Origin: Dryococelus australis
Lineage: Eukaryota; Arthropoda; Insecta; Phasmatodea; Phasmatidae
Length of the DNA stretch: 64,000 nt
Assembly: GCA_029891345.1 (NCBI GenBank)
Contig: CM057003.1
Location: 10,668,209 to 10,732,208, forward strand
Direction: 5' to 3'
Shown: piece after piece, positions 14,226 to 63,835 of the stretch
Layout: each line of letters opens with the position of its first letter
How positions within the stretch are numbered: position 1 is the stretch's first letter
Program-made: the position numbers and the translations under genes
Notes under the pieces: generated by a model
The model's input: only the letters and a program-made list of their open reading frames with translations
Told to the model about the DNA's origin: nothing
The model's database searches: none

Positions 14226-14794
14226 CACTATCTACCAAAAATTAATTGGGCACCTGTCCACAATGTTTACTCTGTGGTTGTCACCCCATTAGAATCTCGC
14301 AGGGCCACCTCTTGCGGCTATAACAGCAGCCACCCTGTCTGGCATGCTCTCTACGAGTGTTTGCAGGACATCCACATGGATTCGTCGCCATTCCTCTTGC
14401 AACCATTCCATGAGTTGAGCAATGGATTTTTGCCGCGTCTGACGAGCCCTCACCCAGCGATCCAATTCGTCCCAAAGATGTTCTATAGGGTTGAGGTCGG
14501 GGCTCTTGGCGGGCCAGTCCAATCGGCGAACATTGTTGTCGGCGTACCACTGCATAGTAGCTCTTGGAACATGGCACCTGGCATTATCGTCCTGAAAGTA
14601 ACACGGGTCCATTCCGCAAAAATGCCACAATGTTGGGGGCATTTCATTATTCAGAAAGTTACAATAGGCCTCTGTGTTCATGCGACCTCGAATAAATACC
14701 AGCGGTCCTACGCCGAAGGCCGTGAAACACAAGTCAACTGACGTACTGAAATACCTATCTTCACGGGTGACCAATTACTTTTTGGTAGATAGTG
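14226..14794 (-). mobile_element. Internally deleted Tc1-like DNA transposon
   Basis: Terminal inverted repeats start CACTATCTACCAAAAA at both ends and extend to about CAATTGGNCACC. They are flanked by TA (14224-14225 and 14795-14796), the Tc1/mariner target duplication. The 569-bp element keeps only the C-terminal half of the transposase, so it cannot move itself but may be mobilised in trans. It lies inside a family B element. Confidence 0.92.
14289..14774 (-). pseudogene. Tc1-like transposase, C-terminal half
   Basis: About 161 open codons on the minus strand. Contains the second catalytic Asp in YFQDDNARCH, the third acidic residue in SPDLNPIEHLWDELDR (DD34E type), and the C-terminal MPDRVAAVIAARGGPARF. 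The N-terminal DNA-binding region and first Asp are missing: the 5' end runs straight from the TIR into mid-catalytic domain. The frame is intact over this half, implying a fairly recent element or a copy of one. The plus ORF opposite is only a shadow. Confidence 0.88.
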
Positions 14795-42149: not shown

Positions 42150-42312
42150 ACCCCGAAAAAAAGTAGCAAGTAATACATTAATTATACGTCGATATACTAT
42201 AATTTTTAGTCTAATTATTTGTTCCGTCGTTCGGCAAAACTCGTTACTTCCTCTCTTTCTTTCTCGCTAACTCCACTCGACCATTTATAAAGTATTTTCA
42301 GGTACATAACAC

Positions 42313-43788
42313 CAAAAGAAAAAGACACAAAGCACGAAAAAACACGCAATATCTTATCGCACCGGCCCCTTATCAGGCGAAGGATTGGCTCCATATCTCT
42401 ACCTGTTTAAACAATCAAGGTTAAAACTTCTAAACTAGATTACCTGACGCTAAGTATATTACCTCGAAAACAAACTCACCAATATAATCTTAACCACTGA
42501 ACCGAATTCAGTCAAACAAACAGCAATGTAATCACAATTACTCCAGCAGTACAATTATGACAAAAAATTGCAAATATGAAGCAAGAATAATAGTGTTACA
42601 GTCGTCACAAACAATTAAATACGTAGTTAATATCCTGTATATTGGATCAGAAATCGACTATCAAACCACAACCTTAATACACCGCAAGGGTGTATCCCTC
42701 CTAATGAGTTCCCTTCATGAACTCTAATTCCACTGTCAACTGTCAGTCACGTATGTGTGTATTTATTGGTGCAGGTGCAAATTCATTTTTCTGGTTCGTT
42801 TGGTGCAAGGGTAATGACAGGTAAGCTAGTCAGGCTTCCTTTATGGCATAAAAGATATATATTTTATAATACTACCAACATCCTACTACGAATAAATGTT
42901 ATCTATGGGCCAATTAACAAAAAAGGACGCACAGAAAAAACAAAACATATACCGATTACGACGGCGAAAAAGATTTATTATGGATTAAAATACAATTCAG
43001 CATGACCATGGATATGAATGTCACCAGTCGTACCAACCAGCTTGCGATACAACCAAATCTGATCACCAAGTTCAAACTTAAGTTTCTTACGCGAAAACAT
43101 GGAAGCGTTACCAAATCCATAATAAATATTTTTTGCCGTAATAATTGGTTTAAGTTTAATTTTTTCCTGTGCTTCCTTTTTTGTTAATTGGCCCATAGAT
43201 AACATTTATTCGTAGTAGGATGTTGGTAGTATTATAAAATATATATCTTTTATGCCATAAAGGAAGCCTGACTAGCTTACCTGTCATTACCCTTGCACCA
43301 AACGAACCAGAAAAATGAATTTGCACCTGCACCAATAAATACACACATATGTGACTGACAGTTGACAGTGGAATTACAGTTCATGAAGGGAACTCATTAG
43401 GAGGGATACACCCTTGCGGTGTATTAAGGTTGTGGTTTGATAGTCGATTTCTGATCCAATATACAGGATATTAACTACGTATTTAGTTGTTTGTGACGAC
43501 TGTAACATTATTATTCTTGTTTCATATTTGCAATTTTTGTCATAATTGTACTGCTGGAGTAATTGTGATTACATTGCTGTTTGTTTGACTGAATTCGGTT
43601 CAGTGGTTAAGATTATATTGGCGATTTTGTTTTCGAGGTAATATACTTAGCGTCAGGTAATCTAGTTTAGAAGTTTTAACCTTGATTGTTTAAACAGGTA
43701 GAGATATGGAGCCAATCCTTCGCCTGATAAGGGGTCGGTGCGATAAGATATTGCTTTTTTTTCGTGCTTTGTGTCTTTTTCTTTTTGT
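42313..43788. repeat. Giant near-perfect inverted repeat (foldback / hairpin locus)
   Basis: Arms 42313 to about 42985 and about 43112-43788 are reverse complements, roughly 98% identical by eye over the outer 600 bp, with a centre of about 125 bp. Examples: ACGTAGTTAATATCCTGTAT on the left has its exact complement on the right, as does AGGATGTTGGTAGTATTATA. Towards the centre (42915-42985 and 43112-43185) the arms diverge. Outer boundary: AGAAAAAGACACAAAGCACG and its complement. Each arm contains the same short ORF (42757-43005 plus, 43156-43344 minus), and a minus ORF (43205-42978) crosses the centre. The RNA would fold into a stem of over 600 bp. No TE family is identified. Confidence 0.88.
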
Positions 43789-46249: not shown

Positions 46250-47680
46250 ACGTTGTATGAATACGGCCATCATATTTAAAGTAAGTGCCTGAGTCACTTA
46301 AAGCATGTAAGATTACATGGCCTTCCGTAGCGCTAATTGTAGGGAAAATTTGATACAAATCGGTTGATTGGTCCCCGATATATGGCATAAAAATCTCATT
46401 TTCTTAATCGGTGCTATATTACAAAATTGCCTAAAAAAAAGAGGTTCGTTAAAGAATGCTTCTTATAGATACTATCATCATTAAAAGTTTGGTTGAATTT
46501 CGTTAAATTGTTAAATAGATATAATTTTATGTAGGGCTATCCTACAAAATGTCGGAGAAATGAGGCTCTGTATAGATACATTTTATGGATATAATAGATA
46601 CTGACCGCAAACAAAATTGAGTTAAAATTTGTTTCGTATTTTCGTAAATTTATATACTGAGCTAAAATATTTATATGGACGCCATTTTGAAAATAAGTGT
46701 CTGATAAACTCGAGGAATATTAGTCTATATTGCTCCGTAGTGGTATTTAGTTGCCAGATGTGTTGTTTTTCTTCGGAGATATAACATAATTTTAATTTGT
46801 TATGTGATACTATTTCACGAAATGGTGGACAAAACAGACCTTGTATAGACACATTTTATGGTTGTAATCTGTACTGCCAGCATACGAAATTACGTTATAA
46901 TTTACTATGTGGTTTTGACGATACAGCATACAAAACTAAAATAGCTATATGACAGCCATTATGAAAATAAACGGCTGACCTACTTAAAACATTACAGTTT
47001 ACATCACCTGCTGTAGTCATATTTGTTTGCCATATTTGTTGGGAATAGGAGCAATTGTTTCCTTAGATATGACATAAAACTTTATTAATTAATATAATGC
47101 TACATTACAAAACGTCGGGCAGCAATAGTTATTTCTTAACATATATGATACTTGTAATAGATACCATCATCACACAAAATTTGGTATTATTTAGTTGAAC
47201 AGTATGGTAGTTACGCCAAATAAACTTAGAGTATATTTGTCTAAAAGACATTTTGAAAATGAGTAGGGCTCATAAATTTGAATTAAATACGTGTAAATAA
47301 CTTACCATAGTATTAATTACGTGCCAGAGTTGACAATAATTGGTTGGGTAATTTTGGAGGTATGACGTAAGATCTTTATTTTTCATTTTGTGCTATCTTG
47401 AAAAAAGAGCGCAAATATCAATATCCATTTCTAAATGCATTACTTACACAATGCCCTGCAAACAAGCTAAATTTTGTTTAAACCGGTTAAATAGTTTCCG
47501 AGGTACGACATAACACCATAAAATTTAAAATTGGCCACAATTTTTAAGTAAGAGCCTTGCGCTGTCGAAAAAAAGAAGTCAGGTTCCTTACTAAGTACTT
47601 TATGTGCAGTAAGTTTGGTGAAATTCGATTCACGAGTTCGAAAATTGAAAATTGGGGGGGGGGGGGGGGACACAAAAATG
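46250..47680 (+). repeat. Dispersed repeat R1, copy 2, internally periodic
   Basis: Same family and orientation as 215-1110. A block with CATTTTGAAAATAAGTG recurs at about 46262, 46684, 46958, 47259 and 47535, and AATCGGTTGATTGG...GATATATGACATAAA blocks follow each. The spacing of 275-420 bp marks diverged tandem units. Ends in GTTTGGTGAAATTCGATTCACGAG, a G-run (about 47653-47669) and the CA-rich tail that seeds the tandem array. Confidence 0.65.
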
Positions 47681-48480
47681 CACATACACGGATACACACA
47701 CTCAGACAGGAAAGTAATCTCACAAGTCCTTTTTTGGTTCGGAAAGTACTCTCAAAAGGCTATCAATAGACTGACAGGTTTGGACGGAGCTTAACAGCCG
47801 AGGGCTTCATCATCGACGGGAGTGGAGTGACGTGTAAATGCACATACACGGATACACACACTCAGACAGGAAAGTAATCTCACAAGCCCTTCTTTGGTTC
47901 GGAAAGTACTCTCTAAAGGCTATCAATAGACTGACAGGTTTGGACGGAGCTTAACAGCCGAGGGCTTCATCATCGACGGGAGTGGAGTGACGTGTAAATG
48001 CATATACACGGATACACACACTCAGGCAGGAAAGTAATCTCACAAGCCCTTCTTTGGTTCGGAAAGTACTCTCTAAAGGCTATCAATAGACTGACAGGTT
48101 TGGACGGAGCTTACCAGCCGAGGGCTTCAGCATCGCCGGGAGTGGAGTGACGTGTAAATGCACATACACGGATACACACACTCAGACAGGAAAGTAATCT
48201 CACAAGCCCTTCTTTGGTTCGGAAAGTACTCTCTAAAGGCTATCAATAGACTGACAGGTTTGGACGGAGCTTACCAGCCGAGGGCTTCAGCATCGCCGGG
48301 AGTGGAGTGACGTGTAAATGCACATATACGGATACACACACTCAGACAGGAAAGTAATCTCACAAGTCCTTCTTTGGTTCGGAAAGTACTCTCAAAAGGC
48401 TATCAATAGACTGACAGGTTTGGACGGAGCTTACCAGCCGAGGGCTTCAGCATCGCCGGGAGTGGAGTGACGTGTAAATG
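47681..48480 (+). repeat. Tandem array, 5 x 160 bp
   Basis: Five units start at 47681, 47841, 48001, 48161 and 48321, each exactly 160 bp and differing by a few bases. Unit landmarks: CACATACACGGATACACACA, GGAAAGTAATCTCACAAG, TTCTTTGGTTCGGAAAGTAC, GACAGGTTTGGACGGAGCTT, CGGGAGTGGAGTGACGTG. The first ~95 bp are the R1 3' tail. The last ~65 bp align with the minus-strand 3' part of SINE-A (TTTGGGCGGCTCTTAGCAGC...). A SINE-A remnant continues right after the last unit. Confidence 0.95.
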
Positions 48481-50573: not shown

Positions 50574-51674
50574 TATAAATCGGAATCAGTTATTTTTTTA
50601 CTGATTGTCAGTTGAAACTGCTCCATCCGGAATCAGTAGAATAATAAAACTACTAATCTCTTCAGTTAAATGAAATCCACTAATACAAACAGTAGAAAAT
50701 CAGTGATTTAAAGTCGATTAATAAAAAGCAAAAGGGTTTAAAACCGTGCATTACGGTTTGAAATAAATTAGGTGTGAAATAATTTTGTCGTAAAACAAAA
50801 TTATTACAAGTACAAGGAAATTTTAGAAGTGGTTTGTATCGAGCCACCACCCTAAAACACAACACATTCTCTCGTTTCTTGTGGCTGACGTTCTACCAAC
50901 TCTGCTACTTTGTCACTGAGATAAACGGCCTCGCATTTGCGTAGTAACATAGACTTACAATGGCGAACGACTGTAAGTTTCGTAATGTGAAAGTACTTCA
51001 TGTTGTAGAAATATACACCATATTATACGTATATAGGTACATGTCTTTGTAAGGCTCGAAAGTCATTATAAGTTAAGTTTAGTTCAGATTGTGTGCTTTA
51101 AAAGTGAAATATAGTGGTTTTAACGGTGATATCGGTGTTTTCTATGTATCTGCCATTTTACAATTCAACGAGATTTTACAGAATGAAACTGTTATTTTGA
51201 AGAGACTGACTGACTAGAAATAACTGTGTTAGTCGCTTCCTCATTATTTGATCTGTTAACTTGCAGACCACAAAACTTTTGTTGGTGTAAATCCACCTTT
51301 CTTATTGAATCACCGCACTATCGAGTCAGTAAAATTATTTCTGATCTATCTGTCACTAAAAATAAGTTTTAATCTGTAGTGGTCTCGTTGCATTGTAAAA
51401 TGGCGGATACTAGTTAACATCGATAACTTCGTACATAGAAACCACTATATTTATATTTTAAAGCACAGATTCCGAACTAAACTAAAGCTAGTAGATTGAC
51501 TTTCGAACTTTGCAAAGACAAATACTTGCATTAACCAACTATAAATAACTAATTATCTACTGCTTGAATTAGTAGATTTCTTTTAACTGATGAATTAGTG
51601 ATATTTTTTCTACAGATTCCGGATGGAGCAGTTTCAACTGACAATCAGTAAAAAATAACTTATTTCGATTTAGA
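50574..51674. mobile_element. Foldback-type element D1
   Basis: The left arm starts CTATAAATCGGAATCAGTTA and holds TGATTGTCAGTTGAAACTGC and TCCATCCGGAATCAGTAGAA. The right end is the reverse complement. The inverted arms continue (GTGCTTTAAAA, CATTTTACAATTCAACGAG) but the left arm is interrupted at about 50720-51030. That insert contains a minus-strand tRNA-like stretch (TAGCAGAGTTGGTAGAACG, GGCTCGATAC) and AAAACAAAATTATTAC. Non-coding. Related in design to D2. Confidence 0.65.
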
Positions 51675-61500: not shown

Positions 61501-63835
61501 TAGGTAGCAGAAACTTATTATATTTCTAACACTTTCACAGTATTATTTGAAGAACGCATGGGGGCGACTGAAAAGTAACCATTCAGAATGGTTACCACTC
61601 CGGAAATTTTGCATCAATACTTGCGCAGAAAAATCCGGAATGGTAACCAGTCACATTTTATTAGCAACGCACTGCGTTACTGAATCCTGAAAAGTATCCA
61701 TTGTAGGAATAGTTACCATTCCGGATTTTTGCACCGACATTCACATCCCAAATATCCTGAATAATGCCCACAGTCGGAATATTTACAATTCCGGTATGTG
61801 GGTTTTTAAGTTGTCATCCACAAAAGCCTGAAAACTGTCCACTGCCTTAATGGTAACCATTCAGGACTCAAGTGTAAACATATGTTGACAATATTACAAA
61901 TACTACAAAAATATGTTAAATTGCAAAAAACACACGCACATTATTTCTCAGTGCAAATAAGCCACACACGACAATCATTTATGGGGAAACTCCAAGCTTC
62001 GCTGATGCGTGACGCTTCGCCTCACCACCTAAAAAAAAAAAAAAAAAAATTGTCGGAACGTCTTGAATCACTGATTTGAGTATTTACTCCCCTGCGGGCG
62101 CTGGGACTCCGGCTCGATGCATAATATTTGGCTACGCTTGCACAGGATTTTTAGGTGCGATGGGGCTCTGCTTGAAAATAATTTGTGGGGAAACTCCAAG
62201 CTTCGCTGACGCAAAAAAGACAGATTGGTTACCATTCAGGCAGCGGACAGTTTTCAGGCTTCCGTGGATGACAGCTAAAATACACACATACCGGAATTGT
62301 AAACATTCCGACTGTGGGCTCGTTTCAGGATATTTGGGATGTGAATGACGGTACAAAAAATCCGGAATGGTAATCATTCCTACAATAGATACTCTTCAGG
62401 ATTCAGTAACGCAGTGCTTTGCTAATAATACGTGAATGGTTACCATTACGAATTCTTCTACGCAAGTACTGATGCAAAATTTCCGGAATGGCAACAGTTC
62501 CGAATGGATACTTTTTCAGCCTCCCCCTCCCTCCTCCTCCCGACGCACGGACACCACTGCAGCTTTAATATATAATGTGTGATTAACAGATACGAAATGA
62601 AAACAAAATAAACGCTTTAAAAAAATCTTAGCCCCAAACTCACTACAATAAAATAATGGATATTAGGATAAAATCTTCCAATTCGGACTATCGTTTGAGT
62701 GTTAATTACGTAAATCCCGTAAAAATGGCGCAGCAGATATTATTGTGTTGTGGTACTGACATAAAAATTTCTTCGTGTCTTCCTGAAGAAAATGGGCATC
62801 TTTATCGATACAAATTAAAATTACATCCATATTATATAATTTCGTTATATGTGCGTGTCAATTCATATCCTATCCAAAGAATCGTTCAAGTTTGTGATAT
62901 TTTATAGACACTGTTCGAGTCTAGATGAGTTTAATATATAATGTGTTGGATTAGTCAGTATTCAAATTTAAGAATTGTATTAGCACTTCTTTGGGCTAGC
63001 AACAACAGTCGTATGATGAAAATGTTCGGCCATTCAGTGTTCGGCTATTCGGGATCGATTATGCACTTTTTTTAAAATGCGTGTCAAGCATGTTTCTGAA
63101 TAAACAAGCATGCCAGCAGGTTGGTAATTTCTCCGTTTTTTTTTTTTAATAATTAAATCTAGGATTAATGTTTTTCTTTAAATATGCGATTCTACACGAC
63201 TGTGGTGATGAAGAGGGCGATGCAGATTTAGGGCAAACAAGATGAGATCATTTAAATGATAGCAAGGCGCATTAAATAGCCTATGATTTGTAAGGTTCGT
63301 AGAAAGAACTGTGCGGAGTTGTTCTTATGCGAGCTACTTCTGCTTAACTTTAGGATCCACTGTTTGGAGTGCTTGGGAATCAGGGTGTCCCAGATCGGGA
63401 AGTTGGCAATTCAACTGTGCACCCTGTACGAGTCAATTAATTTTTTTTTTATATTTTAACTACTGAAAATCATTACAAAAACATTAAATTGAAAGTAAAG
63501 CAACGATGTCGTAAATTATCTGATAATATTGGTACTCACCCTCACATCTCCACACATATACAATTAGTAATATGTTTCGTGTAATGCTTGTTAAAGGCGA
63601 TGGAGGCTCAGGTGGATGCAGGAAGGGCCCGCTCCATCGGGTTGTCCAACTTCAACGCCCGCCAGATCAAGAGGATCCCGCCAGCCAACCTCCAGATCGA
63701 GTTGAACGCCTACTTCCAGCAGAGAGAACTGGCAGCATTCTGCAAGGCCCTCGACATCACCGTGTGTGCATACGCTCCTCTGGGTTCGCCGGGCTTCTTT
63801 GAATCCATCAAGAGGTCGGGCAATGTTCGACCTGG
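55522..63835 (+). CDS. Aldo-keto reductase gene, four exons visible, 3' end outside window
   Basis: NADPH-dependent carbonyl reductase of the aldo-keto reductase (AKR) superfamily, a cytosolic TIM-barrel oxidoreductase. Join is 55522-55596, 56159-56326, 59981-60169, 63597-63835, giving 223 residues of a family usually near 320. Visible: N-terminal MPIVGLGTF strand, Asp47 in GYRRIDT, Tyr52 in HAYGNE, Lys81 in FIVTK, YVDLYLL, the SIGLSNFN nicotinamide-binding Ser-Asn, and AYAPLGSPG. Spacing Asp-Tyr-Lys-x is 5, 29, 33, as in AKR1. The fourth tetrad position, normally His (DLYLIHWP), is Gln114 (DLYLLQSAV). Exon 4 is 6-8 residues short between SNFN and the NLQIE stretch. Exons are GC-rich at third positions against AT-rich introns, supporting real coding. 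The C-terminal NADPH-phosphate motif lies beyond the window. It may be a normal AKR paralogue with altered chemistry or an early pseudogene. The substrate cannot be told from sequence. Confidence 0.93.
56159..56326 (+). CDS. AKR exon 2 (56 codons, Asp/Tyr/Lys of the active site)
   Basis: Acceptor CTGCGCAG at 56158 and donor AAG|GTACAC at 56327 bound a 168-nt phase 0-0 exon. It encodes residues 26-81, from ASGEVVGAA through [14 protein letters not shown] to FIVTK. It carries the catalytic Asp47, Tyr52 and Lys81, and ends exactly on the Lys. Base composition is strongly GC-rich compared with the flanks. Confidence 0.93.
56353..56937. mobile_element. Short TIR element (MITE) in AKR intron 2
   Basis: Left end AGGCCTTGTCCACAACA and right end (reverse complement AGGCCTGGCCCACAATA) form terminal inverted repeats about 585 bp apart. 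Subterminal copies of GTCCGCGGAC occur on both sides. There is no transposase ORF, so it is a non-autonomous element. Target duplication was not found. Confidence 0.6.
57145..57350 (-). repeat. tRNA-headed SINE (variant head, SINE-A-like core) in AKR intron 2
   Basis: Read on the minus strand, it begins near 57350 with a tRNA-like head: A-box-like GTCTGAGTTGGATAAG and B box GGTTCGATACC. The body carries GTTTCTCGGGGCTCTCCCGT, nearly identical to the core of SINE-A, but the tRNA head differs. It is antisense to the AKR gene. Confidence 0.65.
57493..57734 (+). mobile_element. Family B short TIR element (B2) in AKR intron 2
   Basis: Starts TATAGGCTAATCACGG and ends CCGTGAATCGCCTATA. The length (242 bp) and interior match the copies at 29400, 31174 and 38857. 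Non-coding, MITE-like. TA at both edges fits TA target use, but the duplication is ambiguous because the TIR itself begins TATA. Confidence 0.75.
57778..57950 (+). mobile_element. Family B long form (B1), right half only
   Basis: Shares TGCATACAAGTAGATCT and the right TIR (ACAGCCTATA) with the complete copy at 19133-19569. The left half is missing: the block starts about 44 bp after the preceding B2 copy. Confidence 0.65.
57955..58197 (+). mobile_element. Family C TIR element, right half only
   Basis: Matches the right half of the complete copy 31976-32402, including TTTTCAAAGGTTTGATT and the terminal GTGAACAGACTATA. Its left half is absent and it abuts the B1 fragment, giving a B1/C chimeric junction near 57950. 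Confidence 0.6.
58553..58993 (-). mobile_element. Family C TIR element, complete, reverse orientation, in AKR intron 2
   Basis: Begins TTCTATTCACGGTTTCATCA and ends AACGTGAATGGACTAC. The interior (GTGCGCATGAATACGG, GTAATTTCCTACACTTGG) is the reverse complement of the family C interior. About 440 bp, no ORF of note. Confidence 0.65.
58996..59933. mobile_element. Foldback-type element D2, ends 48 bp before AKR exon 3
   Basis: Left end CTCTAAATTAGAGTCAGTGG and right end (reverse complement CTATAAATCTGAATCAGTGA) are inverted. Both termini are studded with repeats of the type CACTGATTCA/ATCAGTGA. About 290 bp in, a minus-strand tRNA-like stretch is seen (GATAGCTCAGAT, then GCGTTCAATCCCAG). It is organised like the element at 50574-51674. 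No transposase is visible. Confidence 0.6.
59981..60169 (+). CDS. AKR exon 3 (63 codons; His-to-Gln at the active site)
   Basis: Acceptor GGCTTTCAG at 59980 and donor AAG|GTAAAG at 60170 bound a 189-nt phase 0-0 exon. It encodes residues 82-144, [20 protein letters not shown] through [13 protein letters not shown] to DHLSLWK. Codon CAA (Gln114) stands where the family has His. A TE with long terminal inverted repeats (58996-59933) ends only 48 bp before the acceptor, so the branch point must lie in or next to that TE end. Confidence 0.93.
60170..61559 (+). other. AKR intron 3, first part
   Basis: AT-rich intron between exon 3 and foldback E. It contains T-runs near 61207-61330 with several repeats of TTTTTACTATGAATAG. 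No ORF, RNA gene or known repeat recognised. Confidence 0.6.
61560..62525. mobile_element. Foldback element E in AKR intron 3
   Basis: Two inverted arms of about 310 bp (61566-61875 and 62215-62525) flank a 340-bp centre. The arms are built from repeats of the self-complementary word GGAATGGTTACCATTCC and variants. The outer ends are GGGGCGACTGAAAAGTA and the reverse complement of TACTTTTTCAGCCTCCCC. Possible imperfect 8-bp target duplication: ACGCATGG (61554) and ACGCACGG (62543). The centre carries a direct repeat of GGGGAAACTCCAAGCTTCGC (at 61981 and 62187). Non-coding. Confidence 0.7.
62526..63596 (+). other. AKR intron 3, last part
   Basis: AT-rich, TE-free by eye. A short ORF of 83 codons (62656-62907) matches nothing I recognise and has random-like composition. 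Ends at the exon 4 acceptor. Confidence 0.55.
63597..63835 (+). CDS. AKR exon 4 (79 codons plus 2 nt)
   Basis: Acceptor TTGTTAAAG at 63596 and donor CCTGG|GTGAGC at 63836. Encodes [20 protein letters not shown], then [18 protein letters not shown] and AYAPLGSPG, ending SGNVRPG in phase 2. The acceptor has a weak pyrimidine tract. Relative to family members the loop between SNFN and the NLQIE strand lacks 6-8 residues. Reading on without splicing hits TGA at once, so the donor is needed. Confidence 0.9.

What the first reader, a model, noticed from the sequence alone, without database searches (positions are those of the whole stretch)
42313..43788. A 1.5-kb almost perfect hairpin locus
Two arms of about 670 bp are inverted copies, about 98% identical, around a centre of about 125 bp. 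Identity is very high in the outer 600 bp but falls abruptly near the centre, where only the shorter words still match. Such a locus could be a foldback transposon, a pair of long TIRs from a large element whose interior was lost, or a hairpin-RNA source of endogenous siRNAs. The high identity implies recent origin or gene conversion. No family I know matches, and identical arm ORFs follow from the duplication, not from coding constraint.
Basis: partly seen in the sequence, partly recalled or inferred. Interest (0 to 1): 0.8.

Follow-up and report, generated by a model that had tools for sequence, protein, structure and literature searches.

The report
Fold-back relic of ssDNA virus family
The 1.5-kb hairpin is a folded-back copy of a short, much-repeated DNA element that appears to descend from an unknown small single-stranded DNA virus of arthropods, and about half of the copies examined carry the same kind of inverted join, each at a different place.

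Summary
The hairpin is real: arms 42311-42986 and 43114-43788, 127-bp loop, 98.1% identity over the outer 617 bp, about 82% over the inner 60. It is not one of a kind. The arm is a dispersed repeat of the same 3.4-Gb arthropod genome (40 of 1163 first-look candidates scored). Longer copies show a ~1.3-kb unit joined head to tail, so probably circular (10 of 39 loci); the loop is simply the next part of that unit. In 19 of 39 loci, window included, a forward piece abuts an inverted one, at differing breakpoints. A shared region also abuts a gene with HUH- and SF3-like motifs; its N-terminal piece in one locus matches Pfam's geminivirus Rep domain weakly (E=5.6e-4, below cut-off), and all five PDB hits are Reps at E 0.03-1.2. 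Best reading: an endogenised, amplified CRESS-like ssDNA virus family. The window copy is a snap-back: a strand starting at the putative Rep nick site folded on itself, was copied to its own 5' end, and integrated. Mechanism is inferred. Foldback transposon and hairpin-RNA gene are less supported; small RNAs were not testable.

The parts
42311..42986 (+). Left arm; family unit from u1 inwards (u1 to about u710, u = L025:1575-2873)
42987..43113 (+). Loop; continuation of the left arm in the family unit (to about u833)
   Evidence: matches other copies at up to 96.9%; chain
43114..43788 (-). Right arm; inverted copy of about u710 back to u1
43111..43119 (.). Inverted junction; the two family matches overlap by 6 bp in BLAST, about 3 bp (AAT) of microhomology by eye
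42978..43113 (-). Remnant of ORF X: about its last 44 codons with the stop; the 75-aa open frame P0001 is a chimera of right-arm sequence and this remnant
42303..42310 (+). Possible 8 bp of the other end of the unit, just outside u1; doubtful

Best explanation
The locus is an integrated snap-back (self-copied) fragment of a ~1.3-kb subgenomic circle of a dispersed repeat family derived from a CRESS-like (Rep-encoding) single-stranded DNA virus of arthropods. Shown: the dispersed family; the head-to-tail ~1.3-kb unit; frequent inverted joins with differing breakpoints; a recurrent outer border u1 beginning 5'-AC; linkage of the same shared region to a gene with Rep-like motifs. Inferred: a linear strand with its 5' end at u1 (putative Rep nick site) and its 3' end near u833 annealed to itself near u710 and was copied back to u1, giving a hairpin with both ends at u1 and a 127-nt loop, which then integrated without a target duplication that I could see. 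The divergent inner 60 bp needs an extra step: later conversion of the outer arms only, or a template switch to another variant.
For: Dispersed family, 57 match rows from 40 scored of 1163 candidates. End of unit joined to its start in 10 of 39 loci, one being the ruler copy L025. 21 inverted junctions in 19 of 39 loci, all coordinate pairs different, 12 of 21 with 2-8 bp overlap. Nine of 12 outer borders within 5 bp of u1 meet unrelated flank at 5'-AC, both window ends included. Shared region runs into a Rep-like block in L046 with 40 matches of 44 candidates in the genome; the unit lies in the held flanks of 6 of 10 Rep-like loci, one of them L046's own. Walker A/B, B' and C-like motifs in natural frames; H-x-H and Y-x-x-K-like motifs; Gemini_AL1 E=5.6e-4 for the L069 piece; five of five PDB hits are Reps, E 0.029-1.2. 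Window arms 98% alike but 84-87% like the best other copies listed.
Against: The Pfam match is below its cut-off and the L073 piece has none. Helicase frames have no Rep or SF3 hit in Pfam and their profile none in PDB; RNA_helicase PF00910 finds 0 of 93 candidates in the genome. No relative in IMG/VR. No conserved origin stem-loop was found (two copies). The inner 60 bp diverges, which a simple snap-back does not predict. u1 was defined from the window's own right end and the query began 2 bp inside it, which favours copies holding that end.
Confidence: 0.66

Rival explanations
1. A foldback-type or long-TIR DNA transposon: the arms are its terminal inverted repeats, moved by a transposase.
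For: Long inverted arms with symmetrical ends at u1; dispersed in the genome.
Against: Other copies fold back at other coordinates or are single fragments (20 of 39 without a direct inverted join). No target duplication seen by eye at the window flanks. No transposase gene was seen linked to the unit, though not searched for systematically.
Confidence: 0.14
2. A captured or tandemly repeated satellite DNA or other circular DNA of non-viral origin, rearranged on integration by end joining; the Rep-like gene is a hitchhiker or a host-side partner.
For: Inverted and direct joins with short overlaps are also typical of end joining; ORF X has no known relative.
Against: The unit's shared region directly abuts the Rep-like block in L046, and unit and Rep-like pieces are neighbours in 6 of 10 loci.
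Confidence: 0.13
3. A selected hairpin-RNA locus giving endogenous siRNAs.
For: Geometry: 675-bp arms at 97-98% would form a long duplex if transcribed.
Against: Fold-backs are common in this family, so geometry alone needs no selection. No RNA data are at hand.
Confidence: 0.05

Closest known systems
Endogenous circular ssDNA virus sequences and ssDNA-virus-like transposable elements (Liu et al. 2011, PMC3198968; passages seen)
   Same: Rep-like genes dispersed in eukaryote genomes, animals included; a geminivirus-like element in truffle with no obvious target duplications.
   Different: The passages give generally under 10 copies per species and near sixty in two arthropods; the truffle element has fixed 37-bp TIRs and transposase ORFs. 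Here a Rep-less ~1.3-kb unit is far more abundant by first-look count and forms fold-backs with variable breakpoints.
Geminivirus-type Rep (Pfam Gemini_AL1, PF00799)
   Same: N-terminal piece of one locus aligns to the catalytic domain; PDB Reps align over 62 residues.
   Different: Below the Pfam cut-off; no coat-protein relative; arthropod host.
Snap-back (fold-back) defective DNAs of small ssDNA viruses (recalled, no paper seen)
   Same: Self-complementary arms, single-copy loop, ends at a fixed replication end.
   Different: Here integrated in a chromosome; free molecules not observed.
Foldback (FB) transposons (recalled)
   Same: Long inverted arms around a loop.
   Different: No fixed arms in this family and no target duplication seen.

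Membership tests
CRESS-type ssDNA virus, endogenised | Rep with HUH endonuclease domain | tested here: inconclusive
   Motifs by eye in L069 and L073; Gemini_AL1 E=5.6e-4, below cut-off, for L069; none for L073; PDB Reps E 0.029-1.2
CRESS-type ssDNA virus, endogenised | SF3 helicase domain in Rep | tested here: inconclusive
   Walker A, B, B', C-like motifs in aligned natural frames, but no Rep or SF3 hit in Pfam, none in PDB and PF00910 0 in genome
CRESS-type ssDNA virus, endogenised | Circular genome or component | tested here: inconclusive
   End-to-start joins of the unit in 10 of 39 loci; tandem repeats would look alike
CRESS-type ssDNA virus, endogenised | Origin stem-loop with nonanucleotide | tested here: not met
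   No convincing stem-loop in two copies scanned; the only ATTATTAC match in the locus is at 43138 and is no more than chance for the window
CRESS-type ssDNA virus, endogenised | Capsid protein | tested here: inconclusive
   ORF X has no relative in Pfam, PHROGs or PDB
Foldback transposon | Fixed inverted termini across copies | tested here: not met
   21 inverted junctions, all coordinate pairs different; 20 of 39 loci without one
Foldback transposon | Target-site duplication | tested here: inconclusive
   None seen by eye at the window flanks; other loci not tested systematically
Hairpin-RNA (endo-siRNA) locus | Transcript processed into small RNAs | not testable with these tools
   No RNA data are held

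The most novel reading that the evidence does not exclude
An undescribed lineage of multi-component, geminivirus-Rep-like ssDNA viruses infected arthropods. Its Rep-less 1.3-kb satellite circle entered the germline by Rep nick-and-join at u1, hundreds to a thousand times or more, and snap-back replication intermediates were captured as unique hairpins. The genome thus holds a fossil record of ssDNA replication intermediates. The lineage also carried a small Cys-rich protein resembling the UPF1 zinc domain.
Probability: 0.33. Interest if true: 0.85.

Novelty: new variant of a known kind. Interest (0 to 1): 0.65.

Why it matters
If right, one arthropod genome keeps many independent snapshots of aberrant (snap-back, template-switched) ssDNA replication products, each with its own junction, so that mechanism and nick site could be read from genome sequence alone. 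It would add a high-copy, satellite-like case to endogenous ssDNA viruses, which the 2011 survey gave as generally under 10 and at most near sixty copies per species (PMC3198968, passages), and it points to an arthropod virus lineage whose other ORFs no library recognised.

Tried and rejected
Two chance insertions of one repeat: rejected; the arms are 98% alike but at best 84-87% like the other copies listed.

TIRs of a large deleted element: rejected for the window, because the loop is the next stretch of the same unit.

Retroposition with 5' inversion: rejected; both arms duplicate the same 675 bp and I saw no poly-A end.

Polinton-like parent: a stretch of L049 that looked DNA-polymerase-like by eye is an abundant repeat of its own (rows over query 1-275), and its pieces have no Pfam hit.

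RNA families: Rfam gave 0 in the window. Phage records, IMG/VR and PHROGs gave no relatives. PF00910 gave 0 in the genome.

Codon-position test on ORF X: weak bias only (pairwise 0.091, 0.070, 0.113; shared variable columns 20/16/25, singletons 57/44/54). No firm claim of selection. Substitution along the unit showed no clean coding/noncoding contrast.

Not answered: genome searches with P0002, P0006, P0010, P0011 and PF00799, so the copy numbers of those genes are unknown. Structure prediction was not used; by its stated rule proteins of genome-search loci are not among those admitted.

Full report
Observation. Two arms, 42311-42986 (+) and 43114-43788 (-), flank a 127-bp loop. They are 96.6% identical over 677 columns; the outer 617 bp are 98.06% identical, and 11 of the inner 60 or so columns differ. 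No other piece of the family was found in the window (E up to 1e-3).

Host. The genome has 3,415,067,245 bases in 646 contigs. It gives 139 matches to the cuticle domain Chitin_bind_4 from 143 candidates, against 0 of 14 control genomes (the controls named are bacteria and archaea). I take it to be an arthropod; the species was not established.

Family. The left arm as query gave 57 rows from 40 scored of 1163 first-look candidates; the true number is unknown. I fetched 38 further loci (20, 18), taken from that list by similarity to the arm. With one natural copy (L025:1575-2873, 1299 bp, called u) as ruler, the window reads u1 to about u833 forward, then about u710 back to u1 inverted. The loop is the next part of the unit and matches other copies at up to 96.9%.

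Unit. In 10 of 39 loci the end of the unit is followed by its start: L016, L019, L020, L021, L023, L028, L031, L037, L046 (gaps of 0-23 bp) and the ruler L025 itself. A circle or a tandem array would leave this. The minus strand holds ORF X. Eight natural pieces align (identity to the first 70-86%). At least one fetched copy has a frame spanning both halves; other copies are broken by frameshifts, stops or truncation. ORF X has no credible relative in Pfam, PHROGs or PDB. The window keeps about its last 44 codons.

Fold-backs are common. In 19 of 39 loci, window included, a forward and an inverted piece lie within 100 bp of each other: 21 junctions, all coordinate pairs different, 12 overlapping by 2-8 bases. 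The other 20 loci show none within the fetched flanks. Within-locus arm identity lies mostly between 75 and 96%, with 99.3% over 593 bp in L025 and 99.1% over 107 bp in L060. The window's arms are thus among the youngest or best homogenised; against the best other copies listed they score 84.2-86.5%.

Common border. Of 78 outer borders, 12 were within 5 bp of u1. L009 and L015 continue into the other end of the unit and L036 starts two bases in; the other nine (L011, L013, L017, L020, L025, L031, L033 and both window ends) meet unrelated flank at 5'-AC. Two cautions: u1 was set from the window's right end and the start of L025, so these three are not independent; and the query began at u3, which favours copies with this end. 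A cut just before AC is what Rep leaves in CRESS genomes (recalled).

Linked genes. In L046 the shared region runs into an ORF block. That block has 40 matches, itself included, among 44 candidates, 66-81% identical apart from two matches under 60 bp. Natural frames align with SF3-like motifs (by eye). Pieces in L069 and L073 show HUH-like motifs (by eye). The L069 piece matches Gemini_AL1 at E=5.6e-4 (20.3 bits, cut-off 24); the L073 piece has no Pfam hit. The five PDB hits of the L069 piece are four replication-associated proteins and one 'ATP-dependent helicase Rep', E 0.029-1.2. The helicase part has no Rep or SF3 hit in Pfam, none in PDB for the profile of seven frames, and PF00910 finds nothing in the genome. 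The unit lies in the held flanks of 6 of 10 Rep-like loci, one of them L046's own. In L046 ORF X and the Rep-like block lie on opposite sides and strands of the shared region, an ambisense plan as in geminiviruses and circoviruses (recalled).

Further genes. L037/L063, L060 and L061 hold other ORFs near the same shared region: a Cys-rich ORF (P0006; UPF1_Zn_bind E=0.0013, 19.1 bits, cut-off 25; best PDB hits yeast NAM7 at E 0.26-0.3), P0010 and P0011 (no credible relative). Diverged relatives lie near the unit in L023, L038, L042 and L045. Different ORFs beside one shared region fit several genome components or rearranged deletion products; I cannot tell which.

Mechanism. I favour a snap-back: a linear strand with its 5' end at u1 and its 3' end at about u833 folded on itself at about u710 (about 3 bp of microhomology, by eye) and was extended to its own 5' end. 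This predicts both ends at u1, near-identical arms and a short single-copy loop, all seen. It does not predict the divergent inner 60 bp. Either a later conversion homogenised only the outer arms or one inner part comes from another variant; the best other match is L017 for the left and L012 for the right inner part.

Known context. Passages of Liu et al. 2011 (PMC3198968) give generally under 10 copies of circular ssDNA virus sequences per species, near sixty in two arthropods, and a geminivirus-like element in truffle (42 Rep genes or remnants, 37-bp TIRs, no obvious target duplications). Five library searches (listings seen, only that paper opened) showed no description of this family; that does not prove absence.

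Verdict. Real, not a one-off hairpin and not shown to be an RNA gene; most likely a captured ssDNA replication by-product of a virus-derived repeat family.

Noticed in passing
window 61571-61862 and 62223-62515: A second, older fold-back: arms of about 295 bp at 88% around a 360-bp loop. No hit to the unit.
   Followed up: no
window 50594-50644 and 51605-51655: 51-bp terminal inverted repeats at 96%, 960 bp apart: a likely short DNA transposon.
   Followed up: no
window 47676-48480: Tandem array of five 160-bp units, 97% matches.
   Followed up: no
window 14292-14774, minus strand: 161-aa open stretch that looks like part of a Tc1/mariner-type transposase, by eye.
   Followed up: no
L037:3471-3773: Cys-rich 100-aa frame P0006 with a sub-cut-off match to the UPF1 zinc-binding domain, E=0.0013, inside a fold-back next to the shared region.
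   Followed up: partly
L025 (G000:C3:2020000-2024000): Fold-back with 593-bp arms at 99.3% and a 733-bp loop: another young member of the family.
   Followed up: partly
L049:370-645: Abundant separate repeat, listed copies 90-95% identical to this stretch, polymerase-like by eye, abutting family sequence; no Pfam hit.
   Followed up: partly
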